The position numbers and the translations under genes were made by a program. A stretch of DNA of 59,680 nucleotides from Muribaculaceae bacterium (GTDB taxonomy: Bacteria; Bacteroidota; Bacteroidia; Bacteroidales; Muribaculaceae): NCBI GenBank assembly GCA_023663365.1, contig JAMPHP010000008.1:1-59680 (forward strand). The letters are read 5' to 3'. The notes beneath the pieces were generated by a model, which ran no database searches, was not told the origin of the DNA, and saw only the letters and a list, made by a program, of their open reading frames with translations. Shown here piece by piece: positions 11,094 through 42,618 of the stretch (the stretch's first letter is position 1; each line of letters begins with the position of its first letter).

Positions 11094-11972
11094 ATGTCCA
11101 CAAAAAAAATCATCCCCGCGTCGGAACTCATCATCAACCCCGACGGCACAATATTCCACATCCACCTTCGCCCCGAGCAGCTTACCGACCGCATAATCCT
11201 CGTAGGCGACCCCGGCCGCGTCGACATGGTAGCATCTTTCTTCGACACCAAGACCTTCGAGGTCAGCGCCCGTGAGTTTCACACCATAGGCGGCACCTAC
11301 AAGGGCAAGCCTATCATGTGCATAAGCCACGGCATAGGCCCCGACAACATCGACATCGTGATCACCGAGCTCGATGCCCTGGCCAATGTAGACTTCGCCA
11401 CACGCGAGGTGCGCGACACCCTGCGCCGCCTCACCATGGTGCGCATAGGCACCTCCGGCGCACTTCAGCCCGAGCTCTCGCTCGGCACGCCGGTCATCGC
11501 CGAGAAGTCGATAGGCTTCGACGGCGTGCTCAACTACTATGCCGGCCGCAATGAAGTGGCCGACCTCGACTTCGAGCGCGCCCTCTGCGAGCACACCAAG
11601 TGGAACCCCCTCTGGGCCAAACCCTACGTGGTGGATGCCGACGAAGAGCTCGTGGCACGCATCGGTGGCGACGACATGGTGCGCGGCAATACTATCTCGG
11701 CCGTGGGATTCTATGGTCCGCAGGGTCGTGAGGTGCGTCTGCCCCTGGCAAACCCCGACCTCAACCGCCTCATTGAGAGCTTCGAGTACAAAGGCCGACA
11801 CATCACCAACTACGAGATGGAGAGCGCGCCTCTTGCCGGCATGGGCCGCCTGATGGGGCACCGCTGCATGACAGTCTGCTCAATCATCGCCAACCGCTTC
11901 AACAACGATGCCAACCCCAACTACAAAGACGGCATACGCTCCCTCGTAGCCACCGTGCTCGACCGCATCTAA
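11094..11972 (+). CDS. Nucleoside phosphorylase (uridine phosphorylase type)
   Basis: A 292-aa NP-I family enzyme that cleaves nucleosides with phosphate to base plus (deoxy)ribose 1-phosphate. Motifs: VGDPGRVD near residues 42-49 (phosphate site), SHGIGPDNIDIVI, RIGTSGALQPEL, and NYEMESAPL, the conserved Glu-Met-Glu segment that binds ribose. Uridine is the probable substrate for this length and motif set, but purine specificity cannot be excluded. The ATG at 11094 starts 83 bases after dprA; no clear promoter box is seen between them. Confidence 0.88.
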   Translation: MSTKKIIPASELIINPDGTIFHIHLRPEQLTDRIILVGDPGRVDMVASFFDTKTFEVSAREFHTIGGTYKGKPIMCISHGIGPDNIDIVITELDALANVDFATREVRDTLRRLTMVRIGTSGALQPELSLGTPVIAEKSIGFDGVLNYYAGRNEVADLDFERALCEHTKWNPLWAKPYVVDADEELVARIGGDDMVRGNTISAVGFYGPQGREVRLPLANPDLNRLIESFEYKGRHITNYEMESAPLAGMGRLMGHRCMTVCSIIANRFNNDANPNYKDGIRSLVATVLDRI

Positions 11973-12049: not shown

Positions 12050-13606
12050 TTACTTCTTGGAGAGTCGCATCACTTTCACTCCGTGAGTGGGAATCGACAC
12101 CTTGGCCGAGCCTTTCATGTCGGGGAGGTCGACGCGGTCGAGCGGGTTGCGGGCCTTGTAGCTGGCCTCGGGGTCGAGAGCGTCGATTGAAGCGAGGTCG
12201 ATGGTGTAGTCGGCGGGCTCATCGTTGAGGTTTACGGCAGCTACGGCCACGTCGCCGTTGGCAAGGTCTTTCACCCACAGCTGCACGCCGCCTGTCTCAC
12301 CCATATACTCGGCACACTGGCCCATGGGGTCCTGATTGATGGCAATAAGCTCGGGATTGGTGATCACGGCCAGATCTTCGGGCGCGATGGAGTCGCGGGC
12401 ATCGAGCGAGAGCATCAGCGGCGAGCTCCACATGCACCACATCACAAACTCGGTGTGAGCCTCGTCGGTGCTCATGCCGAAGTACTGCTTGCCGTCTTTG
12501 AGGAACATTCCGTCCTCCTTGCGGCGCGACACGCCGTCGAGAAGGATGCTCGACGACACACCACGGCCACGGATGCCTATGCAGAGCATGTCGGCATCGT
12601 TGAAGTGGTTCACTCCGGTATACGACCAGAATTCGGGCCATATCTTCAGTGCCTGCCACACGCCTATGCCATGGCGGTGGATATCTTCCTGAAGGTGGCG
12701 ACCCATCCAGCCGTCGCGGTGGTCGTGAGTTGAGCGCCACAGAGGAGCGCCAACCTTGTGCGCCCATCGCCAGGGCTCGGTGCTGCCCCACTCGCACATA
12801 TAGAGCACGATGGGGCGCCCGGTGCGCTTGAGGGCATCGGCCATGCGGCCGTAGAGGTAAAGAGCCGTCTCGGGGTCTTCCGACACCCCTTTGCCAAGGT
12901 GCAGCTCAGGCACGAAGCAGTAGTCGTACTTGAGGAAGTCGACTCCCCACTCGGCATATTTGCGAGCGTCGGCATCCTCGTAGCGGTATGAGCCGTACTT
13001 GCTGTCGCAGGTGAGGTCGGCGGCGGTGGAGTAGATGCCGAATTTGAAGCCGCGGTCGTGGAGATAGTCGCCCACGGCTTTCATGCCGTCGGGGAAGCGC
13101 ACGGGGTCGGGCGCGGCGATGCCGTCGGCCGGACGCTCGCGGCCCGAGTGCCAGTCGTCGTCGATGCCGAGCCATCGGTAGCCGGCCTCGCGGAGGCCTT
13201 TGTCGGCAAAAGCGTCGGCCACCTCGTAGACGGCCGATGCCGACACATTCTCCATCACGGTGTTCCAGCTCAGCCAGCCCATCATGGGTGTGGGCATGGG
13301 CAGGGCCGAGCTCACGGTGAGGTGCACGGGCACGGTGTCGATGCCGTTAACCACTATGCCGTAGCTGTAGTCGCCTTCGGTGTCGATGCGGCCTTCCACC
13401 AGCCGGCGGCGCTCATTCCAGCGCAGGCCTTCGGGCAGGCGGATGGCCTCGACGGTGGCGGCGCTGTCGGAGGGGCGTATCTTGTGCATGTAGGGCGTGC
13501 CGGGCAGCGAGTAGGTGCGGTCGGAGCAGCGCAGCAGCACGCTCTGTGCCAAAGCCGGGGCCACAAACAGGCCGGCTGCGAAAATACTTGCAAATAAGCG
13601 TTTCAT
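12050..13606 (-). CDS. GH27 alpha-galactosidase, secreted
   Basis: A 518-aa protein with signal peptide (1-20, ...PALAQ). After an Ig-like N-terminal module (~21-100), the TIM barrel starts at GWLSWN (110-115). GH27 features: LGIDDDWH (147-153), KYDYC (226-230) with nucleophile Asp 228, and a region WRSTHDHRDGW (290-300) with the acid/base Asp. A C-terminal beta-sandwich ends with GVKVMRL. Hydrolyses terminal alpha-galactosyl residues, in the periplasm or outside the cell; alpha-GalNAc or beta-L-arabinopyranose activity also occurs in GH27. Last gene of the DUF4855 operon, 6 bases after the GH36 gene. Two alpha-galactosidase families side by side imply a substrate with more than one type of alpha-galactosyl linkage. 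Confidence 0.9.
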   Translation of the reverse strand: MKRLFASIFAAGLFVAPALAQSVLLRCSDRTYSLPGTPYMHKIRPSDSAATVEAIRLPEGLRWNERRRLVEGRIDTEGDYSYGIVVNGIDTVPVHLTVSSALPMPTPMMGWLSWNTVMENVSASAVYEVADAFADKGLREAGYRWLGIDDDWHSGRERPADGIAAPDPVRFPDGMKAVGDYLHDRGFKFGIYSTAADLTCDSKYGSYRYEDADARKYAEWGVDFLKYDYCFVPELHLGKGVSEDPETALYLYGRMADALKRTGRPIVLYMCEWGSTEPWRWAHKVGAPLWRSTHDHRDGWMGRHLQEDIHRHGIGVWQALKIWPEFWSYTGVNHFNDADMLCIGIRGRGVSSSILLDGVSRRKEDGMFLKDGKQYFGMSTDEAHTEFVMWCMWSSPLMLSLDARDSIAPEDLAVITNPELIAINQDPMGQCAEYMGETGGVQLWVKDLANGDVAVAAVNLNDEPADYTIDLASIDALDPEASYKARNPLDRVDLPDMKGSAKVSIPTHGVKVMRLSKK

Positions 13607-13612
13607 ATTACT

Positions 13613-15799
13613 TTACTTAGAGATTGCGTCGAGGCGCAGCACGCGGCTCGAGTAGTCCGACATCATGGTATCGTGACGGTAGGGCAGCTCGAGGCCGTTG
13701 GCCATGAGCCACGCGCCGGTGTACTCTTTGCCCTCGCAGGCCAGCGGCTTGTTGTCGATGCGGTTGAGCTCAGTCACGCGGTAGAGCTTGTCGGGGTCGA
13801 GGCCGTCCATGGTCACGCGGGGGTAGTGGTGGTTGCAGAAGTCGCCGGTCTTGTACCAGAAGAACACTGCATGGTCGCGGGGTTCGTCGACATACATCAG
13901 CGCGGCCACACCGTTGCCCTCGTAAGGCGAGTGCAGGCGGTATTGGTCGCCGAGCTGCACGGTGGGTCGTATCTGCTTATAAGTGGCGATTGCATCCTTG
14001 CAGAATTTACGCTCGAATTCGGTCATGTGCTTGGGCTGGAGCTCGAGGCCGAGGCGACCGCTCATAGCCACGTCCACGCGGTACTTGATGGGTGTGGCAC
14101 GATGCGTGGCATGGCATGGCGATGCCGAGATATGCTGCGCCATGGCTATGGCAGGGAAGAAGTAGCTCGTGCCCCACTGCATATACACGCGCTGGAGCGG
14201 GTCGGTGTTGTCGCTCACCCAAAATTCGTCGAAGTAGGGTAGTATGCCCCAGTTGGCACGCCCGCCGCCGCTGGCGCAGGCCTGCACCGTCACGTCGGGG
14301 TACTTCTCGCGGATGCGCTTGCACACATTCTCGAAGCCGCGGTGGTAGTCGATGAGCAGCCGGCTCTGGGCGTCGGCTTTCTGGTAGTTGGAGCCATGGT
14401 TGCGGAGGCACATGTTGGCATCCCACTTGATATAGTCAATAGCCGGATATTCCGTCATGAGCCGGTCGAAGACATCGAACACGTGCTCCTGCACGGCCGG
14501 ATTTCCGAGGTCGAGCACCATCTGCGTGCCGCCACGGCCGTACACCGGTTCGCGTCCGGGAGCTTTGATGATCCAGTCGGGATGCTTCTCGTAGAGCTCG
14601 CTCTCTTTGTTGACCATCTCGGGCTCTATCCATATTCCGAATTTCAAGCCTTTTGCGTCGGCCGACTTCAGCAGGTCGGCGATGCCGTTGGGCAGGCGCT
14701 TGCGGTCGATATCCCAGTCGCCGAGGCCGGCTTTATCGTTGACGCGCGGGTATTTGTTGCCGAACCAACCGTCGTCGAGCACGAAGAGCTCACCGCCCAT
14801 TGCGGCGATGTCGCCCATCATCTCCTCAAGCACGGGCTCATTAACGTCGAAGTAGATGCCTTCCCACGAATTGAGCAGGATGAGACGCTCAGTGTCGCCG
14901 TGCTGCAGGCGGTACTTGCGGCCCCAACGGTGCAGTTTGCGGCTCACGCCGGAGGTGCCTTCGTCGCTGAAAGTGAGCGCGAGTGCCGGTGTGACGAAAG
15001 TCTCGCCGGGAGCCAGCATATAAGCCTGGTTCTCGGGGTCGATGCCGGCCGTGAAGTGATGGAATGCCGAAGCGTCGGTGTTGAAGGCGAGCTCGTAGTT
15101 GCCGCCGTAGCACAGCGCCGCGCCTATGGTGCGGCCTTTGCGCTCGTCGGGCTTGCCGTCGAGGCTGAGCATCACTTCGGCGTGCGAGTTCTGCGAGTTG
15201 CGGATACCGTCGACGTTCTCCACGATTTTTATGCCGGGGGTGAGTCGCTCCTGATTGAGGTTGCCTTCATTGCCCCAAGCGCCGTTGAGGTGGCTGAGCC
15301 ATACGTCGCCTCTGCGCACGGGCAGGTAGGCTGAGGCGTATTTGGTGAGCCGCACGGGCTTTTTCTCTCGGTTGGTGATTTCGGCCCACGTCTCTATCAC
15401 ATCGCAGCCGGGGCGGGTGAGGTAGCATACGTCCACGAAGAAGGGGTAGAGCTTGTCCTTGAGCGTCACCCTTGTGAGTGTGCCTCCGTCGGGGCGGCTC
15501 TCGGTGCCAACCTTATCCACCACCATCTCGGTGGCCATCGAGCCATCGGCGTGAGTGGCGGCAAGGGCGTAGGGATTGTATGAGTCCATGCCGTAGACGG
15601 GGTAGGCACCGGCGCGGTTCTCCGAAGCCATCACAGCCGGGACGTCGGCCTCGGCCAAGGGTGCGCCGTAGTACACGAAGCTGAATTTCTCGCCCGGAGT
15701 GGCATCGAGCAGCAGAGAAGTGCCCGGGGTGCCCACATGGAGCTGTGCCGCCGCGGGGAGCACGGCGGCCAGGCAGAGTGCTGAAAGGATGTGCTTCAT
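13613..15799 (-). CDS. GH36 alpha-galactosidase, secreted
   Basis: A 728-aa protein with signal peptide (1-19). The N-terminal beta-supersandwich (~20-290) is followed by the TIM barrel. Diagnostic motifs: LDDGWFG (341-347), IWIEPEMV (389-396), KWDAN (458-462) with nucleophile Asp 460, CASGGGR (508-514), and VSDNTDP (528-534) with the acid/base Asp 530. Length is typical of GH36 (700-750 aa). It removes alpha-1,6-linked or other alpha-galactose from oligosaccharides. Its start codon overlaps the stop of the upstream GDPD-EEP gene by 4 bases, so the two are translationally coupled. Confidence 0.93.
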   Translation of the reverse strand: MKHILSALCLAAVLPAAAQLHVGTPGTSLLLDATPGEKFSFVYYGAPLAEADVPAVMASENRAGAYPVYGMDSYNPYALAATHADGSMATEMVVDKVGTESRPDGGTLTRVTLKDKLYPFFVDVCYLTRPGCDVIETWAEITNREKKPVRLTKYASAYLPVRRGDVWLSHLNGAWGNEGNLNQERLTPGIKIVENVDGIRNSQNSHAEVMLSLDGKPDERKGRTIGAALCYGGNYELAFNTDASAFHHFTAGIDPENQAYMLAPGETFVTPALALTFSDEGTSGVSRKLHRWGRKYRLQHGDTERLILLNSWEGIYFDVNEPVLEEMMGDIAAMGGELFVLDDGWFGNKYPRVNDKAGLGDWDIDRKRLPNGIADLLKSADAKGLKFGIWIEPEMVNKESELYEKHPDWIIKAPGREPVYGRGGTQMVLDLGNPAVQEHVFDVFDRLMTEYPAIDYIKWDANMCLRNHGSNYQKADAQSRLLIDYHRGFENVCKRIREKYPDVTVQACASGGGRANWGILPYFDEFWVSDNTDPLQRVYMQWGTSYFFPAIAMAQHISASPCHATHRATPIKYRVDVAMSGRLGLELQPKHMTEFERKFCKDAIATYKQIRPTVQLGDQYRLHSPYEGNGVAALMYVDEPRDHAVFFWYKTGDFCNHHYPRVTMDGLDPDKLYRVTELNRIDNKPLACEGKEYTGAWLMANGLELPYRHDTMMSDYSSRVLRLDAISK

Positions 15800-17277
15800 T
15801 TCGAGAAATCTACGAGGATGGTCGATACGATGGGGAGGTGGTCGGAGGCTGCGTAGGGCGAGATGGGGCCTTCTGCGGTCTTTTCAAGACGGAAGGCAGC
15901 CTTGGGGAAGCCGAAGATATAGTCGAGGCGCTTGTCGGGAGCCTTGGCAGGATAGGTGGGGGCATCGCCGCAGAGCATGGCACCCTCTTCCTCGAGTATT
16001 TTCACAGCGGGCATGTCGGGTGTGGCGTTGAAGTCGCCGGCGAGCACGGCGGGGATGGAGTCGGCGCCGAGCAGCTTCACTATGTAGCGGGCCTGCTCCT
16101 CGCGCTGCGAGGCGTCTTCGACAGAGAGGTGTGTCGAGGCAAACACGAAAGGCTTGTGACCGTCGAGCAGGAATTCGCCCTTGAGCATCACGCGCGGCTC
16201 CACGTTCTTGTAGTTCGGCAGGTCGAGGCTCTCAACCTTCACTGTGGGGTGGCGCGAGAGGATTGCGATGCCGTAGTAGCCGTCCTTCACGCTGAAGTTC
16301 ACGGTGCGGCCGAAGTAGCCGAACATGCCCGTGTGCATGGCGAGCTCGTTGATGAAGTTGCGGCCGTTGTTGTGCGGCGCTATGTTGCGGAAGCTGTTCA
16401 CGTCCACTTCCTGCAGGGCTACAAAGTCGGGGTTCTGCTCCTTGATTTCCTTGGCGATGCGCTCCATCGAGGCGAGTTCGCCGAAGCGGATGTTGTAGCT
16501 CATCACCTTGATTTCGCGGGGAGCGTAAGCCTTGGCGATGAGCTTCTGGGCGAGCTCGGGTTCGTTGGTGGTGATGAGGTCGGCACCGTGGTCGATGCAC
16601 CACTGGATGTCGGCTTCGGAGTCGACGGTCCAGATGTTGACGGGCATACCCTGTGCGTGGAGCTCATCAATCCACTCGGGATGGCGGCGGAAGTGGTTGA
16701 TGTGGTAGTCGGCACCGGCACCGCCGATTTCTTTGAGGACTTTAGGTGTGACGGCGTTGAGGTAGAGCACCGGGCGTCCGCTCTCACGCACGAGGATGTC
16801 GAAAGCGTGGCGCGAGAAGGTGATGTAGCTCGTGCGGTCGGTGAGGCCTTTGTCGGCGATCATCTTGATAATCATGGGCACGGCCACATCCTCGCGCTTG
16901 TTGTCCTTGTGAGGCTTCACCTCCAGCACGAGGTCTATGCCGAGGGTGCGGGCGGTGTCGAGGAAGGCATCGAGGCGGGGCGGAGTCTCGCCGTTGCGGA
17001 GGTGGCAGCGGTCGAGGCGCTCTGAGTCGGCGGTTTCGATCACTACGCCGTCGACATCGGCATTATGGTTCACATACAGCACATCGTCGGCACTGATCCA
17101 TACGTCGAACTCGCACTTTTCGGCGCCTATGGAGTCGGCTTTGACAAGTGCGCGGATAGAGTTTTCGGCAGAGCCCGGGGCACGGTGATAGCCACGGTGC
17201 GCCACCACTTCGGGGACTACCGCCCAAGCACCGGCAGCAGTGCACAGCAGTGTGATGATTGCAAGGAATTTTTTCAT
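15796..17277 (-). CDS. Secreted GDPD-EEP fusion: two phosphodiesterase/phosphatase domains
   Basis: A 493-aa protein with signal peptide (1-19). Residues ~22-240 are a glycerophosphodiester phosphodiesterase domain: VVAHRGYHRAPGSAENS (catalytic His-Arg and Glu-Asn), CEFDVWIS, VNHN, and LEVKPH. Residues ~250-493 are an endonuclease/exonuclease/phosphatase domain: MSYNIRFG, FVALQEVD, STHLSV, AGDFNATPD, and SDHLPI at the end. Both active sites look complete. GDPD cleaves glycerophosphodiesters; secreted EEP domains act on phosphodiesters or phosphomonoesters such as sphingomyelin, sugar phosphates or nucleic acids. Its place between DUF4855 genes and two alpha-galactosidases suggests a phosphate-bearing glycan or glycolipid, which is inference. 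Confidence 0.88.
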   Translation of the reverse strand: MKKFLAIITLLCTAAGAWAVVPEVVAHRGYHRAPGSAENSIRALVKADSIGAEKCEFDVWISADDVLYVNHNADVDGVVIETADSERLDRCHLRNGETPPRLDAFLDTARTLGIDLVLEVKPHKDNKREDVAVPMIIKMIADKGLTDRTSYITFSRHAFDILVRESGRPVLYLNAVTPKVLKEIGGAGADYHINHFRRHPEWIDELHAQGMPVNIWTVDSEADIQWCIDHGADLITTNEPELAQKLIAKAYAPREIKVMSYNIRFGELASMERIAKEIKEQNPDFVALQEVDVNSFRNIAPHNNGRNFINELAMHTGMFGYFGRTVNFSVKDGYYGIAILSRHPTVKVESLDLPNYKNVEPRVMLKGEFLLDGHKPFVFASTHLSVEDASQREEQARYIVKLLGADSIPAVLAGDFNATPDMPAVKILEEEGAMLCGDAPTYPAKAPDKRLDYIFGFPKAAFRLEKTAEGPISPYAASDHLPIVSTILVDFSK

Positions 17278-17302
17278 GATATATCTTATATCTAAAGGAT
17301 GT

Positions 17303-18499
17303 TTATTTCACGTAAAGTTTCAAGGATGAGCCGCGGCCGTCGGTGGCGATGTAGATGCCGGGCTCGCAGCTGTGGATGCCTTCCCCTGAGTGAATCAGGC
17401 TGCCGGCAAGGCTGTAAACCGCAGCGTGGGGAGCGCCTGCGATTTCGATAGTGCCCTTACCGGCCTTGGCGAAAGGGGCCTCCGACGCTTCGGGGGCGGT
17501 GATGCCGGACTCGTCGCCGCTGATGGTCATGTGGCCTTCGGCATCGATGCTGAAGAGTGCGGGCTTGCCACCGGAGTAGCCACGGTAGGCGAACACGCCG
17601 GGGGCGGCAGCACGACATTCGTCGGTCTCGGGAGTCTTGAACCAGGTGTAGATGCCGTGCCAGCGTGTCACGTCGCCCTGGTGCACGGTGTAGGAGCCCA
17701 TGAGCTTATGGTAGCTTTTGGTGTAGCTGTTGCCGATGAACACCACATCGTCGTCGGCCACGCAGTTGCGTGAGCCAAGGCCGTAGGAGCGGTCCATCCA
17801 TGCAGCCTGATAGGCTGTGGGCGAGTGCTCCACGAAGGTGCAGAAATTCGGCGCCGAAGCCTTGCTGAAGCGGTTGACACCGGCCACGGGAGTCCAGATG
17901 AAGTATTCACCGCCGGGAGTCAGAATTTCGGTTTCGCCCATAAACATCGACTGCATGCCGTAATAGCGGTCGACCAGCTGAGGCAGAGGCTCCATGTACT
18001 CGTGCTGCGCATATATCTCCACGCTGTTTCCGGCCACGGTATAGGTCATGGTCTCGCGGGCAAAGACGCGGGTCTCCGAAGCGGGCATCAGGAGCGTGTT
18101 CACCACCTTGATGGTGAGCACATCGCCCTCGGCCTTTTGGCGCTTGGTGATGTCGAGGGGCTTGCCGTCGAGCTCCACCTCCACGCTCTCGGTGCGTGCC
18201 GAGCGCATCTCGGTGCCGTTCGAGGGATTTGTGTGGTTGCCGCCTGTCCATCCCGAAGGAATCAGGAAGGGTCCGATGTTGTCGCTGTCGGTGTGGTTGA
18301 CCTCAGTGCCGTCGACGGTGATTGAGCTGAAGGTGAAAAGATTGTTTGCCATGCAGCGGGCGAAGGAAATGCCGATGCTGCCCGAGGCATCGGTGCCGTC
18401 GGAGGTGTATGTAAGCTTCCCGTTCTGGGTCCTTACAGTGGCTGCCGACAGCCCTAAGGCTGCCGACAGCATGAGTGTGCATATAAGATGCTTTTTCAT
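17303..18499 (-). CDS. Secreted protein of unknown function with T9SS-like C-terminus
   Basis: A 398-aa protein. The ATG at 18499 is chosen because a good signal peptide follows (MKKHLICTLMLSAALGLSAA) and it overlaps the upstream stop by 4 bases. The body (residues ~20-330) looks all-beta, with distinctive stretches DSDNIGPFLIPSGWTGGNHT, YYGMQSMF and WMDRSYGLGSRNC. The last ~45 residues (IEIAGAPHAAVYSLAGSLIH, then EPGIYIATDG and KLYVK) resemble the C-terminal modules of the two single-domain DUF4855 proteins and a Por/T9SS sorting signal. I do not recognise a family. By context it acts on, or binds, the same polymer as the DUF4855 proteins; a lyase, isomerase or carbohydrate-binding role are all possible. 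Confidence 0.75.
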   Translation of the reverse strand: MKKHLICTLMLSAALGLSAATVRTQNGKLTYTSDGTDASGSIGISFARCMANNLFTFSSITVDGTEVNHTDSDNIGPFLIPSGWTGGNHTNPSNGTEMRSARTESVEVELDGKPLDITKRQKAEGDVLTIKVVNTLLMPASETRVFARETMTYTVAGNSVEIYAQHEYMEPLPQLVDRYYGMQSMFMGETEILTPGGEYFIWTPVAGVNRFSKASAPNFCTFVEHSPTAYQAAWMDRSYGLGSRNCVADDDVVFIGNSYTKSYHKLMGSYTVHQGDVTRWHGIYTWFKTPETDECRAAAPGVFAYRGYSGGKPALFSIDAEGHMTISGDESGITAPEASEAPFAKAGKGTIEIAGAPHAAVYSLAGSLIHSGEGIHSCEPGIYIATDGRGSSLKLYVK

Positions 18500-20589: not shown

Positions 20590-20602
20590 TATTGTGATAT
20601 GG

Positions 20603-22654
20603 TTATTTCTTATGGTTCAGGGCCGGATTTGCACGGCGCTCCACTATTTTGCGGGCGAGGCGGTCGGCCACGGCCTGATTTTCGGGCGAAGGGTTCTCGA
20701 ACATTTCGAGCAGCGCCTTGCTGCCGGTGTAGTAGGCTATGGCCGAGGTCTGCCACACGCCGTAGCGCTCGAAGGCGTCGATGTAGGCGTGCATGCGGTC
20801 GATTTTGCTATCGGGGTGCTGCGAGAGGGCGAAGTGGTCGCACTCGAACTCCATGGCCAGGCCGTGGTGGAGCGAGATGTCGATGGCTTCGTCGAGGCGC
20901 TTGTCGGGCAGCGGGTCGAAGAAATGGTTGGGCTGGTGGTAGGCGATGTCGAAGCCGAGCTCACGCCATTTCTCGTAGCCACGGCCCTTGAAGTAAGGTA
21001 TCCATGAGAATTCGAGGCCCTCAGCGTGGATGTAGGGGGCTATGAGCGCCGGGAAGTCCTTGGCGGCGATGTTGTCCTCGCCGAACCAGTAGATGCCGTG
21101 CAGCTCAAGATTTTCGTAGCCGGCAGCGCGGAAGCGGCTTATCATGCGGTCGAGATACCACTTGGCCGCCGTGAGTTTGTCGGCATCATTGGAGAAGTCG
21201 AGCATGCGTCCGTCGAGCTCGCCCCACTCCTTGGCGCGGCTGTCGGGAATCTGCAGTGTGAGCACCACCTTGTGCTTGAAGCCGGGGTCGCCGATTTCTT
21301 TCTTGAGCTTGCCTATGCACTTGTCGAGGGCATCGAGGCTCTTGCCGCTCTCGTACACACGGTCGATGTACCACTCCCATGTGGCCTTGTTGCAAGTCTC
21401 CATATTGTCGAGGAAGAGGTAGCCGTCGAAGAGCCAGTCGCGGCTGCCGTCGGCGAAGGTGTGTGCCACGTAGGGCACGAACTGCTCTTCGGTCCAGTCG
21501 ATGCGGCGTGTGTTGCCTTGATATATGAGGCCGAGGTCGCGGATGGTGTTGGTGGGGAAGGTGAGCGAGGCTGCTTTGGCGGCCTGTCGCTTTGCCACGA
21601 TGCGTGCCATGCGGTCGGCTATCTCGTGGTCCTTGGCATCGGTGCTCTGTGTCAGATGCGGGAAGCCCTGTGTGCCGGAGTACCAGGCCACGGCGGCGCT
21701 GTCGAACACTCCTTTTTTCTCGAAAGTGTCGAGGTAGTCGACAAGGCGCGAGTAGTAGCTGTCGGGGTCGGAGTGTTGCACACGGCTGTTGCCCTGGGTC
21801 TCGAACTCCATCTCGAGGCCGAGGCCGTAGCGCTTGCTCTCGTCGCAGGCATCTTCGAGGCGGCTCAGAGGCACGCTGCGGTCGAAGAAATAGTTGGGCT
21901 GCTGGTAGGCCACGTCGAAGCCGTACTTATCACGCCAGTTGAAGCGGAACTCCTCGTTGTTCTCATAGTAAGGAATCCAATAGGAGCGCATGGTGTTGCG
22001 GTAAATCCAGTCGGTGATCACGGGCACAACCTCATCGTTGGTGAAAAGGCTCTCCTCGAGCCAGTAGATGCCCGAGAGGTCGATGTTGGCGAACTCACGC
22101 GCGGCGAAGCGACGGCGGATTTCGGTCACATACCACTTGGAGGCGGCGATGCGGTCGTCGGTCTTGCCGAAGTCGAGCTGCCTGCCGTCGAGCTCACCCC
22201 AAGCTGTACCCTGAGCCTTGATGGGCGCGGGCATACCGAGCACTATCTTGTGGCGCAGGCGCGGCATACCTAAAGTGGCTTTGCCGCGCGCCACGGCGCT
22301 GTCGAGAGAGGCCGCGGTGGCGATGTGCTTCTCAAGGAGCCACTCCCAGTCGGCGCGGGTGGCGTATTTTTTCTCGTTCACACCGTTCTGGAAGCCGATG
22401 TCGGTGGAGCCTGAGCTGAACTCCAGCACCAGGAAACCGTCGAAGAACCAGTCCTTTGTGCCGTCGGCATAGGTGTGCACCACGTAGGGCATGAGATTGT
22501 CGGCATTCCACTGCGGGCGTCGGTCGGAGCCCGAGTAGATGAGCGCGAGGTCGGAAATCACGTCGGTGCCGTAGCTGTTTACCTCAGTGTAGGCCGCGGC
22601 TGTTAATGTCGAAAATGCAAGCGCGAGGCTTGCCAGATAATTGTGCACTCTCAT
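20603..22654 (-). CDS. Tandem DUF4855 protein (two domains), paralogue of the next gene
   Basis: A 683-aa protein with signal peptide (1-20) and two DUF4855 domains. It aligns end to end with the 697-aa neighbour, so one arose from the other by tandem duplication. Landmarks: DLSGIYWLEE (192-201), SYWIPYY, GFDVAYQQPNYFF, GLGLEMEFE in domain 1; ELHGIYWFGE, FSWIPYF, GFDIAYHQPNHFF, GLAMEFECD in domain 2. Domain 2 has Gly-Glu where other copies have Glu-Glu or Asp-Glu, so the last Glu is the invariant residue of that motif. Ends at HKK without a sorting module. Six bases after the upstream single-domain gene. Confidence 0.85.
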   Translation of the reverse strand: MRVHNYLASLALAFSTLTAAAYTEVNSYGTDVISDLALIYSGSDRRPQWNADNLMPYVVHTYADGTKDWFFDGFLVLEFSSGSTDIGFQNGVNEKKYATRADWEWLLEKHIATAASLDSAVARGKATLGMPRLRHKIVLGMPAPIKAQGTAWGELDGRQLDFGKTDDRIAASKWYVTEIRRRFAAREFANIDLSGIYWLEESLFTNDEVVPVITDWIYRNTMRSYWIPYYENNEEFRFNWRDKYGFDVAYQQPNYFFDRSVPLSRLEDACDESKRYGLGLEMEFETQGNSRVQHSDPDSYYSRLVDYLDTFEKKGVFDSAAVAWYSGTQGFPHLTQSTDAKDHEIADRMARIVAKRQAAKAASLTFPTNTIRDLGLIYQGNTRRIDWTEEQFVPYVAHTFADGSRDWLFDGYLFLDNMETCNKATWEWYIDRVYESGKSLDALDKCIGKLKKEIGDPGFKHKVVLTLQIPDSRAKEWGELDGRMLDFSNDADKLTAAKWYLDRMISRFRAAGYENLELHGIYWFGEDNIAAKDFPALIAPYIHAEGLEFSWIPYFKGRGYEKWRELGFDIAYHQPNHFFDPLPDKRLDEAIDISLHHGLAMEFECDHFALSQHPDSKIDRMHAYIDAFERYGVWQTSAIAYYTGSKALLEMFENPSPENQAVADRLARKIVERRANPALNHKK

Positions 22655-22660
22655 AGTGGG

Positions 22661-24034
22661 TTATTTTACGGCGATTTTCACCGCGCGGTTCTTGCCGTCG
22701 GTGGCGATATAGATGCCTGCGGGGCAGGAGAAACGTCCTTCACCGCTGTGCACCACGGCACCGGTGATGCTGTAGACCACAGCTTCGGGAGCGTTGGAGA
22801 TGAAGATTTCGCCCTTGCCGGGGTATGCAAACGGAGCTTCGGGAGCCGCCTCGGGCGCGTCGATGCCGCTTTGCTCGGCAAAAGCAGTCTGGCGTTTGCG
22901 CACGAGCTCTGCCAGGCGGTCCATGGTGGCCTGGTTCACGGGGTCGTTGCTGTTGAGCATGTCGAGCATACCTTTCGAGCCGGAGTAGTGAGCCACGCCC
23001 GAAGTCTCCCACACGAGTTTTTCCTCGAAAGCGTCGAGATAGTCGATCAGGCGCTGGTGCATGTGCGGAGCCACATTGTGGAGGCCGTTGCTGGTGCCCG
23101 AAGTCTCGAACTCGAGCTCGAGGCCGAGGCCGTAGCGCTTGCTCATGGTGATGCAGTCGGTGAGCTGCGTCTTCTCGGGGAGGGTGCCGTTCTTGTAGAA
23201 GAAATAATTGGGCTGGCGGTATACCATGTCGAAGGCATAGTTCTTCCACTCGTGGGCGTAGACGTCGTTGCCGGTGCCCCAGTAGGGTATCCAGTAGGTG
23301 CGCAGGCCTTTGCTGCGGATGTAGAGGTTGACCGTCTTGATAAAATCTTTCACGGACCAGAGCGTCTCCTCGGCACAGTAGATGCCGGCAAGGTCCAAAT
23401 TGCGGTAGCCGGCTTCGCCAAAGCGGCGTATCACTTCGTCGACGGCCCATTTGGAAGCCTCGATGCGGTGGTCGGGCTGTGAGAAGTCCATGTCGGTGTC
23501 GTTTATGGTGCCGAAGTCAAATTTCTTCCACTCGCAGGCTGTGGGTGTGCCGCGGCCGTCCTTGCAGGGGAAGGGTATGCCGATGATCACCTTGTGGCGC
23601 AGGCGCGGCTCACCGAGCTCCTCGCGGTAGGAGTCGATGGCGCGGTCGAGAGCGGCGATGTCGTGCTCGGGTGAGAAGATGTGGTCGAAGTATGCGTCCC
23701 ACTCGGCCTTTGTGGCCGGAAGCTGGCCGCCGGAGGCGTTGATGAGCACGCGCGTCTCGGTCTTGCCGGAGGCTGTGCGTGTGGTCCAGTTGGTCTCGTT
23801 GAAGATGAAAGCGTCGTAGAGCCAGTCGCGGGTGCCGTCGGCATAGAGGTGGGTGAGATAGGGGCGGAGGTTCTGCTCCGTCCAGAGGGCGCGCTTGGCG
23901 AGACCTCCCGTATAAATAAGCACGGGGTCGCACACCTCGGTGTCGACTCCGAACTTATTCACGGGCCTGGCGCCTAACGCGGCCGAAGCCACGCCCGCGA
24001 GGAGAGTGATTAAAGTGAGTATTCTTAATTTCAT
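22661..24034 (-). CDS. Single-domain DUF4855 protein with T9SS-like C-terminus
   Basis: A 457-aa protein. The ATG at 24034 is preferred over an upstream in-frame start at 24100, because it begins a clear signal peptide and lies just after a promoter box. DUF4855 spans ~28-390: DLAGIYCAEE (214-223), YWIPY (247-251), FDMVYRQPNYFF (268-279), GLGLELEFE (302-310). The last ~45 residues (GEIFISNAPEAVVYSITGAV ... CPAGIYIATDG ... AVKIAVK) form the same sorting-like module as in the neighbours. Function unknown; a secreted glycan-active enzyme is the best inference from operon context. Most similar to the adjacent 456-aa protein. Confidence 0.85.
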   Translation of the reverse strand: MKLRILTLITLLAGVASAALGARPVNKFGVDTEVCDPVLIYTGGLAKRALWTEQNLRPYLTHLYADGTRDWLYDAFIFNETNWTTRTASGKTETRVLINASGGQLPATKAEWDAYFDHIFSPEHDIAALDRAIDSYREELGEPRLRHKVIIGIPFPCKDGRGTPTACEWKKFDFGTINDTDMDFSQPDHRIEASKWAVDEVIRRFGEAGYRNLDLAGIYCAEETLWSVKDFIKTVNLYIRSKGLRTYWIPYWGTGNDVYAHEWKNYAFDMVYRQPNYFFYKNGTLPEKTQLTDCITMSKRYGLGLELEFETSGTSNGLHNVAPHMHQRLIDYLDAFEEKLVWETSGVAHYSGSKGMLDMLNSNDPVNQATMDRLAELVRKRQTAFAEQSGIDAPEAAPEAPFAYPGKGEIFISNAPEAVVYSITGAVVHSGEGRFSCPAGIYIATDGKNRAVKIAVK

Positions 24035-24056
24035 TATAGATGTGAATTGTGTATTG

Positions 24057-24064
24057 CAAAGATA
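24057..24064 (-). promoter_or_regulatory. Internal -7 box TATCTTTG within the DUF4855 operon
   Basis: Minus-strand TATCTTTG located 22 bases upstream of the ATG at 24034, in the only intergenic gap over 50 bases in the operon. No TTG at the usual spacing. It may give extra transcription of the seven downstream genes. Confidence 0.5.
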
Positions 24065-24086
24065 GTGAAAAATGTGGTGTGGCGAG

Positions 24087-25457
24087 CTATCGCACGGCAA
24101 CTTTTACGGCGCTGCCCTGCCCGTCGGTCACGATATACAGGCCCGGATCACATGCCTTGCGGCCTTCGCCGCGCATCACGGGCACACCCGAGAGGGTGTA
24201 GACCACTGCCGAGGGGGCATCGAAAATATACAGCTCGCCTACGCCGGCAATCACGAAGGGGCAGCTCTGCCCGGGCAGCTCCACCTCGTCGATGCCGCTG
24301 AAGATGCCGCGGCGCTTCACCACGAGGTCGGCAAGGCGGTCGATGGTGGCGTGGTCCACTTCGTCCTTGCTCTTGGCCATATCCACGAAGCCGTAGCTGC
24401 CGCAGTAGTGTGCCACGCCCGATTCATCCCACACGCCGTAGTCCTCGAATTTGTCGATATAGTCGATCAGGCGACGGTGCATCCATGGCTGTATGCCGTT
24501 GAGCGCCATGCTTGTGCCTATAGTCTCGAACTCAAGCTCGAGGCCGAGACCGTAGACCTTGCTCTGCTCGATGCAGTCGATGAGCTGAGTGATTTCGGGC
24601 AGTGTGCCATCCTTTTTGTAGAACATGTAGTTGGGCTGGCGGTAGGCGATGTCGAAGCCGTACTCTTTCCACTCGAGGGCATAGACGTCGTTGTTGGTCC
24701 AGTAAGGTATCCAGTAGGAGTGCAGCCCGAGCTTGTGAATGTGGGCGTTGACGCTTTTGATGAATTCTTTCACGGTCCAGAGCGTCTCTTCGGGGCAGTA
24801 CATGCCGGCGAGCTCGATGTTCTCGAAGTTCTCGGCTGCGAAGCGCTCCACTATTTCGTCGATAATCCAGTTGGTGGCTACTGTGCGGTGGCGCACAGTC
24901 GAGAAATTCATGACCACGCCGTTGAGCTCACCCCAGTCGAATTTCTTCCAAGTACATTCGGTGGGAGTTCCGCGGCCGTCCTTGCAAGCAGTGGGGAAGC
25001 CGAGGATTACCTTGTGCTTGAAGCCCGGCTCGCCGAGCTCGGCTTTCATCTCGCCGATGAGGTCGTCGAGGGCGTGCAGGTCGTGGTCGGGGGCGAAGAT
25101 GTGGTCGACGTAGGCGAGCCAGTCTTCTTTTACTGCGGGCAGCTGACCGCCGCCGGCGTTGGTGAGCACGCGGGTCTCGGTGCCGCCGCCAGGCAACTTC
25201 ACGGTCCACGAAGTCTCGTTGAAGATGAAGGAGTCGAAGAACCAGTCGCGATGCCCGTCGGCATAGTCGTGGATGAGGTAGGGGGTAAGGTTCTCCTTTG
25301 TCCAGGCTATTCGCTTGGGCAGGCCGCCGGTGGGAATGAGTACGGGGTCGGAAACTTCGGTGTCGACACCGTAGGCGTTGTATTCTGTTTTAGCAACGGC
25401 AACAGATGAAGCTGCGATGCCGAAGGCCAGGGCGAGTGCTATTGCTTTATTTTTCAT
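24087..25457 (-). CDS. Single-domain DUF4855 protein with T9SS-like C-terminus
   Basis: A 456-aa protein with signal peptide (1-22). DUF4855 covers ~26-390: ELAGMYCPEE (215-224), YWIPY (248-252), GFDIAYRQPNYMFY, and GLGLELEFE (303-311). It shares with the 457-aa neighbour an extra motif CKDGRGTPT before KKFD that is missing in the double-domain proteins, so the single-domain proteins form their own subgroup. The C-terminal ~45 residues (ELYIFDAPSAVVYTLSGVPV ... CDPGLYIVTDG ... AVKVAVR) are sorting-like. Its start overlaps the stop of the GH3-esterase gene by 4 bases. Confidence 0.85.
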   Translation of the reverse strand: MKNKAIALALAFGIAASSVAVAKTEYNAYGVDTEVSDPVLIPTGGLPKRIAWTKENLTPYLIHDYADGHRDWFFDSFIFNETSWTVKLPGGGTETRVLTNAGGGQLPAVKEDWLAYVDHIFAPDHDLHALDDLIGEMKAELGEPGFKHKVILGFPTACKDGRGTPTECTWKKFDWGELNGVVMNFSTVRHRTVATNWIIDEIVERFAAENFENIELAGMYCPEETLWTVKEFIKSVNAHIHKLGLHSYWIPYWTNNDVYALEWKEYGFDIAYRQPNYMFYKKDGTLPEITQLIDCIEQSKVYGLGLELEFETIGTSMALNGIQPWMHRRLIDYIDKFEDYGVWDESGVAHYCGSYGFVDMAKSKDEVDHATIDRLADLVVKRRGIFSGIDEVELPGQSCPFVIAGVGELYIFDAPSAVVYTLSGVPVMRGEGRKACDPGLYIVTDGQGSAVKVAVR

Positions 25458-28400
25458 TTGTCGAGGATTTTGCGCAGCACGGGCAGCAGTGCATCGCAGT
25501 AGCTGCGGAAGCCGCGGTCGGTGAAGTGAATGGAGTCGGAAGAGCCGTCGCCGTCGGCGGGCACAATCTTATCGGCGCTTATGTAGTAAGTGTTGTCGAG
25601 GCCTTCGGCCACCAGTCGCTCGTACATGGCTTTTATGGCGGCGTTCTTGGCGTCGATAGTGGCTTTTATCTTGGTGTCGGTCTGCGAATGGGTGAAGTAG
25701 GGGTCTTCGATGAATACCAAAGGCACGTCGGGGCGGCGTTCGCGCAGGATTTTCACGAAGGGCTCTGTCTTCTCGTTGATTTCCCACACAAGGGCGTTGG
25801 GTACGAAGTCGAGCACATAGACCGAGGCATCGACATCGGCCATCATGCGTGCTATCTCATAGTCGAGGTGGGCGTTTGCGCTGAAGCCGAGGTTGATGAT
25901 ATCGGTGTTGAGCTCGCGGCGGAGGATGTTGTTGGCGGCCATGCCGGGGCGCGAGGCGGTGGCACCGTGGGCTATGGAGCTGCCGTAGATCACCACAGGC
26001 TTGACGGCAGCACGGGGGCTGTCGACTGCAGGTGCCTCAATCACGGCATCGGGAGCCACGCCTATGCGGCAGTACTCGAGGCCGTCGTAGAGCGGCAGAT
26101 GGAGCATATACTCGCGCATCTTGGGCTCCATATTCTCTATGATGAGTGTGGTGGTGGCGGGGTCGCCGTAAGGGATAGCCGGGGCGAGGAAGCGCCATTG
26201 GCCCTCGTCGTTGAGGTAGTAGAGGTCGGCGCCGCGCGAGCCAAGGGCTGCCATGTGTGCCATGGCACCGCCGTAGCGGTTCTTCCAGTCGAGGGCTATG
26301 CGGGGCGAGTCGGTGCGGAAGCGCACTGCCATGCCTGTGGAGTGACGGCCGAGCGAGAAGAGGGCGTCGCGTGTGCCGTCGTGGAGGAAGTCGGGGATGC
26401 GGGTGTAGATGGGGAGCGAGTCGGGGTAGCAGCGGCCCAGCAGGCGGAAGTCGGATGCTTCGTGCCAGCTCATGTCCTCGGTGGGTGAGGGCACCACTTC
26501 ACGCATACGCATGGTGCGGGCTTTCTCCACAGGGGCGAGGATGTCGGCCACCTTGCGCACCGATGCTTTCTTCACGTTGAAGGGCAGGCTCACGATGTAG
26601 TCTCCCACGGAGCGGCCCAGGCGTGCCTGGTAAGTGCCTGCGGCAGTCTCCCACTGCGATGCTTTGTCGTTGAACGAAGCGAGCTCGCGGTCGGTCACGG
26701 TGATGCTCACGCGCTGGCTCTCGCCGGGGGCGAGTTCGCGGGTTTTGGTGAAGCCGCGGAGCTCGGCCTTGGGCTTGGCAAGGCCGCCTTCGGGAGCGCT
26801 CACATAGAGCTGCACCACCTCGCGGCCCGGGTGTCGGCCTGTGTTTGTCACGGTTACGGTCACGGTTGTGCGGTCGCCTTTGCGGCTTACTTTGGCGTCG
26901 GAGTAGTCGAAGTCGGTATAGCTCAGGCCGTAGCCGAAGGGATATGCCACGCGGCGGCCTGTGGTGTCGAACCAGCGGTATCCCATCCAGATGTCTTCTT
27001 CGTAGAAAGTATAGTCGAAGTTTCGGCCTTCGGTCTGGCCGGGCGAGGGGAAGTTGCCTGCCGAGGGCATGTCGGCATAGTGCACGGGCCAGGTCATGGG
27101 GAGGCGTCCCGAGGGGTTGACCTTGCCCGAGAGTACATCGGCCACGGCGTAGCCGCACTCTTGTCCGGGCATCCATGCCACCACGATAGCATCGGGGGCT
27201 GCGCTCCACGAGGCTGTCTCCATGGTGCCGCACACATTGAGCACCACCACCACGGGCTTGCCCTTGGCGTGGAAGGCGCTGCACACTTTCCTAACCATAG
27301 TCTGCTCGGCGGCGGTGAGGTTGAAGTCGTTGCCGACCTTGCGGTCGCCCACTTCACCGCTCATGCGGCCTATCACCACCACGGCTGCCTCGTTGGCTGC
27401 CGCGCGGCTTTCTATCATGGTGTTGGCTTTGGCAAGGTCCATCTCGTCGATCACGGGGCGATGGTACGATACTTTCTGCCACTCGGGGCAGTTGGGGTGG
27501 CTGTCGTTAAGGCGCGCCTGCTGCTCGCAGTAGCTGCGGTAGAGGCCGGCGAGCTCGCTGTCGACATTGTAGCCGGCATCCTCGAGGCCTCGGTCGATGT
27601 CGACCACGTAGCGCTTGTTGACATTCGATGAGCCGGTGCCGCCGGCTATGCTCTGATATGCTGAGGCACCGAAGAGGGCCACCTTAGTGCCCTCTTTCAG
27701 AGGCAGGAGGCTGTCGTTGTTCTTGAGGAGCACCATTGCCTCGGCACCAAGGAGGCGCGATACGGCGGCATTGGCTTCGAGGTCAGGCACCGACGGTTTC
27801 CATCCCTTCGCCGATAGCGAGCGTGCGGCCAGGCGCAGCACGTCGGCCACACAGCTGTCGAGGGCGGCGCCGCTGACGCTGCCGTCGGCTACACATGCAA
27901 GAATTTCCTGCACGATTTTCTCGCTGCCGGGCATGATGAGGCCGGTGCGGGCGTTCAGAAGGTCGGCGGTGGGGCGGTACACGGTCCAGTCGGTGACTAC
28001 GGTGCCGTCGAAGCCCCACTCCTTGCGGAGGAGGTCGAGGAGAAGTTCCTTATTTGTCTGGGTGTATTCCCCGGCGATTTTATTGTAGGAGGTCATCACG
28101 GTCCAGGGTTTGGCCTCGCGCACCACCCGCTCGAAAGCCGGCAGGTAGATTTCGCGCAGGGCACGCTGGCTCATCACGGGGTCGTTGACCTTCTTGCCTG
28201 TCTGCTGGGTGTTTGCCACGAAGTGCTTGAGGCTGGTGCCCACGCCCTGTGCCTGCACGCCCTTGATAAGCTCGGCGGCGAGCGCGCCTGCCAGCAGAGG
28301 ATCCTCGGAATAGTACTCGAAGTTTCGGCCGCACAGCGGGTTGCGCATCATGTTGATGCCGGGAGTGAGAAGCACGTCCACGCCGTATGCGGCACATTCC

Positions 28401-28858
28401 TTACCCATCACTTCGCCTTGTGCTGCGGCAGCCTCGCGGTCGAAGGTAGCGGCCAGAGCCGTGGTCGACGGGAATGCCGTGCACCACTGCGGGCGTGCAT
28501 CGGCAGGAGCTTCTCCCTCCACCACTTCATCGTGTGGCAGGCCGCTCTCATCGTAGACTACACGGGTCGAAATCCAGGGCATGGGGTTGATGCGCGGCCC
28601 CACGGGGCCGTCGGCAAGGTTGAGGCCGGGGATACCTTCCGAAGGTATCGCGAAAGTCCAGCCGGCAGCGCCGGAAGTGAAGTGACTTGGAGCGTCGGTT
28701 GATGCCGACGTGCCTACGAGCAGACGTGCTTTCTGCTCGGTGCTCAAAGATTTCAGGATGCGCGGTATGTCAGCCTCGCTCAGCTGAGCACTCGCACTGT
28801 GTGCTATCGCGCCCGCAAGCATCATTGCCGCTGCAAGGGCGATGTGAAGTCGTTTCAT
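25454..28858 (-). CDS. GH3 beta-glycosidase fused to an SGNH/GDSL esterase
   Basis: A 1134-aa protein with signal peptide (1-24). GH3 N-domain (~30-350) with KHFVANTQQ (211-219) and GFDGTVVTDW (282-291), nucleophile Asp 290. GH3 C-domain (~370-610) has VVIGRMSGEVGDR, where the acid/base Glu lies; a fibronectin III-like domain (~665-735) follows. Residues ~780-940 resemble the beta-sandwich that precedes many Bacteroidetes SGNH esterases, and ~955-1134 are the esterase: YGSSIAHG (Ser 961), NLGFSANAH, DFVPNAL, DSIHFTD (Asp 1108, His 1111). It probably removes ester groups (such as acetyl) and beta-linked sugars from one substrate. First gene of the operon, with a strong promoter upstream. Confidence 0.9.
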   Translation of the reverse strand: MKRLHIALAAAMMLAGAIAHSASAQLSEADIPRILKSLSTEQKARLLVGTSASTDAPSHFTSGAAGWTFAIPSEGIPGLNLADGPVGPRINPMPWISTRVVYDESGLPHDEVVEGEAPADARPQWCTAFPSTTALAATFDREAAAAQGEVMGKECAAYGVDVLLTPGINMMRNPLCGRNFEYYSEDPLLAGALAAELIKGVQAQGVGTSLKHFVANTQQTGKKVNDPVMSQRALREIYLPAFERVVREAKPWTVMTSYNKIAGEYTQTNKELLLDLLRKEWGFDGTVVTDWTVYRPTADLLNARTGLIMPGSEKIVQEILACVADGSVSGAALDSCVADVLRLAARSLSAKGWKPSVPDLEANAAVSRLLGAEAMVLLKNNDSLLPLKEGTKVALFGASAYQSIAGGTGSSNVNKRYVVDIDRGLEDAGYNVDSELAGLYRSYCEQQARLNDSHPNCPEWQKVSYHRPVIDEMDLAKANTMIESRAAANEAAVVVIGRMSGEVGDRKVGNDFNLTAAEQTMVRKVCSAFHAKGKPVVVVLNVCGTMETASWSAAPDAIVVAWMPGQECGYAVADVLSGKVNPSGRLPMTWPVHYADMPSAGNFPSPGQTEGRNFDYTFYEEDIWMGYRWFDTTGRRVAYPFGYGLSYTDFDYSDAKVSRKGDRTTVTVTVTNTGRHPGREVVQLYVSAPEGGLAKPKAELRGFTKTRELAPGESQRVSITVTDRELASFNDKASQWETAAGTYQARLGRSVGDYIVSLPFNVKKASVRKVADILAPVEKARTMRMREVVPSPTEDMSWHEASDFRLLGRCYPDSLPIYTRIPDFLHDGTRDALFSLGRHSTGMAVRFRTDSPRIALDWKNRYGGAMAHMAALGSRGADLYYLNDEGQWRFLAPAIPYGDPATTTLIIENMEPKMREYMLHLPLYDGLEYCRIGVAPDAVIEAPAVDSPRAAVKPVVIYGSSIAHGATASRPGMAANNILRRELNTDIINLGFSANAHLDYEIARMMADVDASVYVLDFVPNALVWEINEKTEPFVKILRERRPDVPLVFIEDPYFTHSQTDTKIKATIDAKNAAIKAMYERLVAEGLDNTYYISADKIVPADGDGSSDSIHFTDRGFRSYCDALLPVLRKILDK

Positions 28859-28891: not shown

Positions 28892-28922
28892 CAAAGTTAC
28901 AAAGACTTTTTCATAGTTGCAA
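28892..28922 (-). promoter_or_regulatory. Promoter of the DUF4855/GH3 operon
   Basis: Minus-strand TAACTTTG (28892-28899) with TTG (28920-28922) exactly 20 bases upstream. The mRNA would start near 28885, with a leader of about 27 bases. It drives all genes from 28858 down to 12050. Confidence 0.75.
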
Positions 28923-35660: not shown

Positions 35661-35687
35661 AATCAGGTATGAACTTTATGAATTTGG

Positions 35688-36737: not shown

Positions 36738-36738
36738 A

Positions 36739-37764: not shown

Positions 37765-37831
37765 TTTGATTACTGTTATACTTGTAGTACCGGGGCGGCA
37801 GCCTGCAGGCCACCGCCCCGGTAGAGGGGTG

Positions 37832-38971: not shown

Positions 38972-38999
38972 GATATTCGGGTTAAGTGTTAGACTTGTG

Positions 39000-39031
39000 C
39001 AAAATTACATTTTTTTCTTCAATCAAGCAAA
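39000..39031 (-). promoter_or_regulatory. Promoter of the galKEM operon
   Basis: Minus-strand TAATTTTG (39000-39007) with TTTG (39028-39031) exactly 20 bases upstream. The leader is about 23 bases. It overlaps the tail of the terminator that closes the PUL. Confidence 0.75.
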
Positions 39032-39033
39032 TA

Positions 39034-39069
39034 AAAATAAAGCCGGACAGGCGTGGTGTGTCCGGCTTT
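39034..39069 (-). terminator. Terminator of the galactan PUL
   Basis: Perfect 11-bp stem AAAGCCGGACA/TGTCCGGCTTT (39039-39049 with 39059-39069), 9-base loop, then ATTTTTATTT on the minus strand. It lies 20 bases after the GH2 stop. Confidence 0.88.
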
Positions 39070-39089
39070 AAAATTGTGCTGAAAGTAGC

Positions 39090-42613: not shown

Positions 42614-42618
42614 GTCGA

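What the first reader, a model, noticed from the sequence alone, without database searches (positions are those of the whole stretch)
12050..28858. SusC/SusD-free carbohydrate operon built around six DUF4855 domains
Nine tightly spaced minus-strand genes (gaps 4-53 bases, several ATGA overlaps) share one canonical promoter. They encode GH3-esterase, four DUF4855 proteins, a secreted unknown, GDPD-EEP, GH36 and GH27, all with signal peptides. Seen directly: gene order, signals, motifs. Known: GH3, GH27, GH36, SGNH and GDPD activities. Inference: DUF4855 proteins are the core depolymerising or debranching enzymes of a glycan with alpha-galactose, ester groups and phosphodiesters. Such a locus without its own importer suggests release of products for another transporter.
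Basis: partly seen in the sequence, partly recalled or inferred. Interest (0 to 1): 0.8.

Follow-up and report, generated by a model that had tools for sequence, protein, structure and literature searches.

The report
Split sugar-eating locus with unstudied enzymes
A Bacteroidales-type bacterium carries a nine-gene set of secreted enzymes, four of them of a family with no known function, which looks like the detached half of a conserved feeding locus for a phosphate-containing sugar polymer, possibly one from other microbes.

Summary
In detail: nine minus-strand genes (12050-28858) encode six DUF4855 domains (E 2e-67 to 3e-95), GH3-SGNH, an unknown protein (U4), GDPD-EEP, GH36 and GH27. "SusC/SusD-free" is only locally true. 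In two congeners the block lies downstream of SusC, SusD, DUF6259, NAGPA (phosphodiester glycosidase) and three further secreted proteins. In this genome those orthologues (SusC about 70%, DUF6259 about 81% identical) lie on another contig, so the operon is best read as the catalytic half of a split polysaccharide utilisation locus (PUL) with its importer in trans. Across 198 family genomes DUF6259 and U4 co-occur with DUF4855 (15 of 27 versus 1 of 171; 10 of 27 versus 2 of 171); U4 is fused to DUF4855 or EEP in relatives. DUF4855 is predicted (pLDDT 91.9) as a glycosidase-like barrel with invariant Glu after beta4 (62 of 62) and on beta7 (61 of 61). All six window copies keep both. NAGPA, GDPD and EEP together suggest a phosphodiester-containing, alpha-galactosylated, esterified glycan; a teichoic-acid-like polymer is my favoured but untested substrate. 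Some DUF4855 genes sit outside PULs, so the phosphate link is not universal. New variant of the PUL kind; substrate and activities are predictions.

The parts
25454..28858 (-). GH3 (N, C, Fn3-like) fused to GxDLY-SGNH esterase, first gene
   Evidence: Pfam; orthologues 69-71% in G032/G128
24087..25457 (-). DUF4855 protein d, single domain plus about 65-aa C-terminal tail
22661..24034 (-). DUF4855 protein c, single domain plus the same tail (start ATG 24034 preferred over the TTG at 24100)
20603..22654 (-). double DUF4855 protein b
18496..20589 (-). double DUF4855 protein a
15796..17277 (-). GDPD (residues 27-241) fused to endonuclease/exonuclease/phosphatase domain (259-480); the only GDPD match in this genome
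13613..15799 (-). GH36 alpha-galactosidase-like protein
12050..13606 (-). GH27 alpha-galactosidase-like protein, last gene
28892..28922 (-). candidate -33/-7 promoter TTGC-N19-TAACTTTG (consensus recalled)
   Evidence: read; not in the sigma-70 scan

Best explanation
The operon is the catalytic half of a split polysaccharide utilisation locus. The other half (SusC, SusD, DUF6259, NAGPA and three proteins without a clear family) lies on contig C22 at about 161-178 kb of the same genome. Shown: gene order, orthology, domain content, conserved candidate catalytic residues, co-occurrence. Inferred: (1) tail-bearing proteins (DUF4855 c/d, U4) act at the cell surface and the tail-less ones in the periplasm; (2) DUF4855 domains are retaining glycosidases using Glu after beta4 and Glu on beta7 (E161 and E239 of the modelled domain) that cut the backbone or different linkages of one glycan; (3) SusC/D from C22 imports the fragments; (4) SGNH removes ester groups, GH27/GH36 remove alpha-galactose, GH3 and DUF6259 remove other sugars, NAGPA cuts sugar-1-phosphodiester bonds, GDPD cuts glycerol-type phosphodiesters and EEP removes the remaining phosphate or cuts another phosphodiester; (5) galactose enters the galactose-pathway genes at 34752-38971. 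The substrate is thus a phosphodiester-bearing, alpha-galactosylated, acylated glycan, most likely from another microbe (teichoic-acid-like or a phosphate-containing capsule).
Against: No transcript or biochemical data. The split could in principle be an assembly error, although both halves are inside contigs (C22 361 kb; window contig 59.7 kb). The operon's and the C22 SusC upstream regions share no word longer than 9 bases, so co-regulation is not shown. NAGPA is not within 15 kb in 23 of 35 clusters; GDPD is near 4 of 35 (0.89 expected; three of the four are this operon and its two orthologues) and His_Phos_2 near 1 of 35 (0.69 expected). G003 has the SusC/D-DUF6259-GH3-DUF4855 locus without NAGPA in it. 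U4 of G032 carries an internal stop. Two genomes have U4 without DUF4855, and in G146 the U4 genes are on other contigs than DUF4855. Counts are not phylogenetically independent. GDPD-EEP homologues also occur away from DUF4855, one beside GH43. Foldseek's own list mixes glycosidases with aldolases and other barrels (best E 1.2e-5, TM about 0.5).
Confidence: 0.6

Rival explanations
1. One reading: a self-standing hydrolase operon without importer that releases products for an unrelated transporter, for example the SusC/D with GH53 in the same window.
For: No SusC/D between 12050 and 28858; a SusC/D/E locus with GH53 and GH2, and galactokinase, epimerase and mutarotase genes, lie on the same strand at 34752-48929.
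Against: In six other genomes (G128, G032, G004, G046, G027, G003) the GH3 and DUF4855 genes lie beside one homologous SusC/D type, which this genome also has on C22. The window's other SusC is only 29% identical to the C22 SusC.
Confidence: 0.1
2. A PUL for a eukaryotic phosphoglycan (GPI-anchor glycans, plant or fungal glycosyl inositol phosphoceramides, or yeast phosphomannan); EEP and GDPD act as phospholipase C/D-like enzymes.
For: The EEP domain has a weak match to the PGAP2IP nuclease-like domain, below the cut-off in the window (24.1 against 27 bits) and just above it in the U4-EEP fusion of G028 (27.9 bits); alpha-galactosidases and GH20 could fit such glycans (recalled). A GH2 with glucosaminidase/mannosidase-type Ig domains lies in L059.
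Against: No mannosidase or inositol-specific family among the nine operon proteins or the seven L055 proteins scanned; the plain Exo_endo_phos family scores far higher than PGAP2IP.
Confidence: 0.17
3. A PUL for an ordinary neutral or acetylated alpha-galactoside glycan; GDPD-EEP merely scavenges glycerophosphodiesters for phosphate, being the only GDPD of the genome.
For: G000, G032 and G128 each have a single GDPD match, the one in this operon; GDPD is only weakly linked to DUF4855 elsewhere.
Against: NAGPA, a phosphodiester glycosidase family, recurs beside DUF4855 in several clades, and an EEP domain is fused to U4 in G028.
Confidence: 0.18

Closest known systems
Bacteroidota polysaccharide utilisation loci (SusC/SusD PULs)
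   Same: Co-directional block of CAZyme genes with signal-peptide-like starts; conserved SusC/D partner in relatives and in this genome
B. thetaiotaomicron BT0439-BT0443 operon (BT0442 is named a DUF4855 protein in PMC10434189, passage seen)
   Same: DUF4855 in a SusC/D operon; [quoted passage not shown]
   Different: An alpha-N-acetylglucosaminidase (GH89, BT0438) is its neighbour rather than GH27/GH36; I could not fetch the locus, so orthology is untested
Clan GH-A type glycosidases (GH5, GH113; family names partly recalled) and the PgaB glycosidase domain
   Different: No sequence match in the PDB; residue before the beta4 Glu is not Asn; many glycosidase families tie in Z
B. subtilis teichoic acid hydrolases GlpQ and PhoD
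   Same: GlpQ as a functional parallel: a phosphodiesterase acting on teichoic acid (PMC11188070, passages seen; that GlpQ is of the GDPD family is recalled)
   Different: Different organism; GDPD fused to EEP here; no evidence here of teichoic acid use

Membership tests
Polysaccharide utilisation locus | adjacent SusC/SusD pair | tested here: not met
   none within 12050-28858
Polysaccharide utilisation locus | conserved SusC/SusD pair linked to the same gene block in relatives and present in the genome | tested here: met
DUF4855 (PF16147) | full-length profile match over cut-off | tested here: met
   six domains
Clan GH-A glycosidases | (beta/alpha)8 barrel with Glu at ends of strands 4 and 7 | tested here: met
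   (predicted structure)
Clan GH-A glycosidases | Asn before the beta4 acid/base Glu (criterion recalled) | tested here: not met
   in the six window domains the preceding residue is Gly, Glu or Asp
GH27 / GH36 / GH3 / SGNH / GDPD / EEP | Pfam match over curated cut-off | tested here: met
Type IX secretion cargo | translocon SprA in genome | tested here: met
   2691 bits
Type IX secretion cargo | C-terminal sorting domain TIGR04183 | tested here: inconclusive
   tails of U4, c and d give no NCBIfam match even at E 10, although they resemble it by eye
Teichoic acid degradation system | activity on a glycerol or ribitol phosphate polymer | not testable with these tools
   needs assay

The most novel reading that the evidence does not exclude
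DUF4855 (with DUF6259 and U4) is an undescribed set of glycosidase families for phosphodiester-linked microbial cell-wall or capsule glycans, and this is a dedicated teichoic-acid-type PUL, here split so that importer and degrading enzymes are genetically unlinked.
Probability: 0.22. Interest if true: 0.8.

Novelty: new variant of a known kind. Interest (0 to 1): 0.5.

Why it matters
DUF4855 is named in only one paper of the library searched, and the B. [quoted passage not shown] The conserved partners found here (NAGPA, DUF6259, U4, GDPD-EEP) give a concrete substrate class to test, four DUF4855 proteins with intact predicted active sites, and an importer to knock out. If the substrate is a Gram-positive phosphopolymer, it would show Bacteroidales feeding on their neighbours' cell walls. 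The split also warns that PUL finders based on adjacency to SusC/D will miss such blocks.

Tried and rejected
Rejected: 'no importer' (C22 SusC/D found). His_Phos_2 as a general partner (1 of 35 clusters, 0.69 expected). alpha-Galactosidases as a general partner of DUF4855 (only the three genomes with the full block, plus one GH27-like gene in L069). A shared regulatory motif between the window operon and C22 SusC (nothing beyond 9 bases; shared words of 10-11 bases with the SusC upstream regions of G032 and G128 were not tested against chance).

Led nowhere: AlphaFold of U4 (pLDDT 47.5), so no fold search was made with it. PDB sequence or profile searches for DUF4855, U4 and DUF6259 gave nothing significant. 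Paper searches: DUF6259, phosphodiester glycosidase plus polysaccharide utilization, DUF2233 plus Bacteroides plus phosphodiester, 7WW4, and Muribaculaceae plus PUL plus alpha-galactosidase plus GH27 were empty. BT0442 gave three papers, two of them unrelated. Teichoic acid, polysaccharide utilization loci, Bacteroides and GDPD (at least 3 of 4) gave 12 papers of which I saw only the listing; none was on the point by title. PMC8225759 (GH89, BT0438) was seen in passages only and names no substrate for the PUL there. Whether the operon's flanking genes mark an ancestral empty site stayed unresolved: the PspC gene and the gene at 11094-11972 are on separate contigs in G128 and G032 and about 4.7 kb apart in G102, with other genes between. 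The order of duplication of DUF4855 a/b is contradictory between its N and C domains. DUF4855 fold matches tie over many glycosidase families, so no family name is claimed.

Limits: gene calls in fetched loci come from my own codon-usage caller. Annotation of neighbours by phmmer with few queries gives lower bounds for SusC/D and others. In one search, 71 DUF4855 hits were found and 9, spanning under 200 model positions, were dropped, leaving 62; L037 and L038 were left out as duplicates of G128 and G032. One search used 45 of the 198 genomes; one search repeated it on 198. G099 (DUF4855 below cut-off) was left out of the neighbour counts. One search used incomplete row lists for GDPD, NAGPA and His_Phos_2; one search is the recount with all rows and is the one cited. 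DUF6259 of G128 and G032 lies just over 15 kb from the DUF4855 anchor and counts as a miss there (13 of 35 at 20 kb). The Poisson and Fisher values ignore relatedness; the genus-level ones reduce it.

Full report
Observation. The window is one contig (C33, 59,680 bases) of a 2.86 Mb genome. Nine minus-strand genes run from 28858 down to 12050: GH3-SGNH, DUF4855 d, DUF4855 c, double DUF4855 b, double DUF4855 a, U4, GDPD-EEP, GH36, GH27. Three neighbouring pairs overlap by 4 bases; the other five gaps are 52, 6, 13, 25 and 6 bases. Six DUF4855 domains are full length and a seventh lies on contig C1, next to a His_Phos_2 phosphatase gene. U4 matches nothing in Pfam or NCBIfam at E 0.01. None of the nine shows a lipobox by a simple pattern. 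A -33/-7 type promoter (consensus recalled) precedes the first gene at 28922-28892.

Surroundings. On the same strand at 39090-48929 lie GH2, GH53, SusE-like, SusD and SusC genes (and a gene at 48973-51411 with a sub-cut-off GH5 match), and at 34752-38971 an aldose epimerase, an NAD-dependent epimerase, a galactokinase and a weakly matched nucleotidyltransferase: a galactan-type PUL with galactose-pathway genes. Its SusC is 29% identical to the operon's conserved partner SusC.

The importer. DUF4855 occurs in 28 of 198 family genomes (27 over the cut-off) and in 5 of 295 order genomes including this one. In G128 and G032, of the same genus, the block GH3-SGNH, DUF4855, 2xDUF4855, U4, GDPD-EEP, GH36, GH27 is present in the same order with one single-domain and one double DUF4855 gene; in G032 the U4 frame carries an internal stop. 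Upstream, co-directionally, are SusC, SusD, DUF6259, NAGPA, and three proteins without a clear family (X439, X1094, X448), then GH3-SGNH. In the window's genome the DUF6259 match and the one NAGPA match over the cut-off are on contig C22. Reading C22 gave SusC, SusD, DUF6259, NAGPA, X439-like, X1094-like and X448-like genes in the same order, with SusC 69-70%, SusD 62-63%, DUF6259 81-82%, NAGPA 49-53% and the others 39-58% identical to G128 and G032. So the PUL is split here between two loci, both inside contigs. GH3 and DUF4855 genes follow a homologous SusC/D pair with DUF6259 also in G004, G046, G027 and G003; details vary (in G027 DUF4855 precedes GH3; G003 has no NAGPA there). In G028 and G045 the two halves are on short separate contigs, consistent with one locus.

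Functional coupling. DUF6259 over its cut-off is in 15 of 27 DUF4855 genomes and 1 of 171 others; U4 in 10 of 27 and 2 of 171; counted by genus 7 of 12 versus 1 of 18 for each. NAGPA lies within 15 kb of 12 of 35 DUF4855 clusters (1.2 expected), DUF6259 11 of 35 (0.27), GDPD 4 of 35 (0.89), His_Phos_2 1 of 35 (0.69). U4 is fused to DUF4855 in G045 and G019 and to an EEP domain in G028. L042 has SusC, SusD, DUF5018, DUF4855, NAGPA, a weakly matched esterase and an MFS transporter; L044 has DUF4855 on both sides of a GDPD fused to a 3-keto-disaccharide hydrolase domain. Against generality, some DUF4855 genes have other neighbours: NusA and IF-2 (L053), CNNM and a kinase (L067), a glycosyltransferase (L066), a flippase-like gene (L075).

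Surface location. A tail of about 65 residues is shared by U4, DUF4855 c/d and, among the fetched loci, by DUF4855, U4 and X439/X1094-like proteins of the related loci (14 further proteins or so, E down to 1e-6; two DUF4855 proteins of L048 score weakly). The double proteins a and b lack it. The genome has SprA, the type IX secretion translocon, but the tail does not match the known sorting domain. Surface display is therefore plausible and unproven.

Substrate. NAGPA (phosphodiester glycosidase), GDPD and EEP in one system argue for phosphodiester bonds; SGNH for esters; GH27 and GH36 for alpha-galactose. Among known glycans a glycerol-phosphate polymer with alpha-galactose and D-alanyl esters (teichoic-acid-like; recalled) fits these enzyme classes, and GlpQ degrades teichoic acid in B. 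subtilis (PMC11188070, passages seen). GPI glycans, inositol phosphoceramides and phosphomannan remain rivals; a PGAP2IP-type match of the EEP domain, just over the cut-off in G028, speaks for the first two. Against a strict phosphate link, GDPD is only weakly associated with DUF4855 generally, and this GDPD is the only one in the genome.

Literature. DUF4855 occurs in one paper of the library, as BT0442 in a table (PMC10434189, passage seen). [quoted passage not shown] the SusC BT_0439 was detected in galactooligosaccharide and milk-oligosaccharide cultures (PMC5238430, passages seen). DUF6259 is in no paper held.

Verdict. Its main inference, an importer-less locus, is replaced by a split PUL. 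The interest lies in an uncharacterised, probably catalytic family with a recurrent set of partners that point to a testable, phosphate-containing substrate.

Noticed in passing
window 34752-51411: Galactan-type PUL (GH2, GH53, SusE-like, SusD, SusC, weak GH5-like) with galactokinase, epimerase and mutarotase genes on the same strand.
   Followed up: partly
window 198-1874 and 1965-5117: Two paralogous BspA-type leucine-rich repeat proteins ending in DUF6383; the first has a sub-threshold T9SS type A tail match (E 0.0028).
   Followed up: partly
window 51557-57492: Fimbrial genes: an Mfa2-type anchor and a weak, sub-cut-off FimA match.
   Followed up: no
L045 9505-11998 (G000 contig C1): Seventh DUF4855 gene beside a histidine phosphatase (branch 2) gene.
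   Followed up: partly
G004 contig C51, 16-31 kb: Five NAGPA genes in a row next to a GDPD gene.
   Followed up: no
G000 contig C34 41780-42694: Second U4 homologue in this genome, away from the operon.
   Followed up: no
L053, L066, L067, L075: DUF4855 genes outside recognisable PULs: beside NusA/IF-2, a glycosyltransferase, CNNM and a kinase, and a polysaccharide flippase-like gene.
   Followed up: partly
window 15796-17277, residues 23-251: The GDPD domain matches PDB chains 7ww4 and 7wwc, labelled beta-1,3(4)-glucanase (E 8e-34); the basis of the label was not found.
   Followed up: partly
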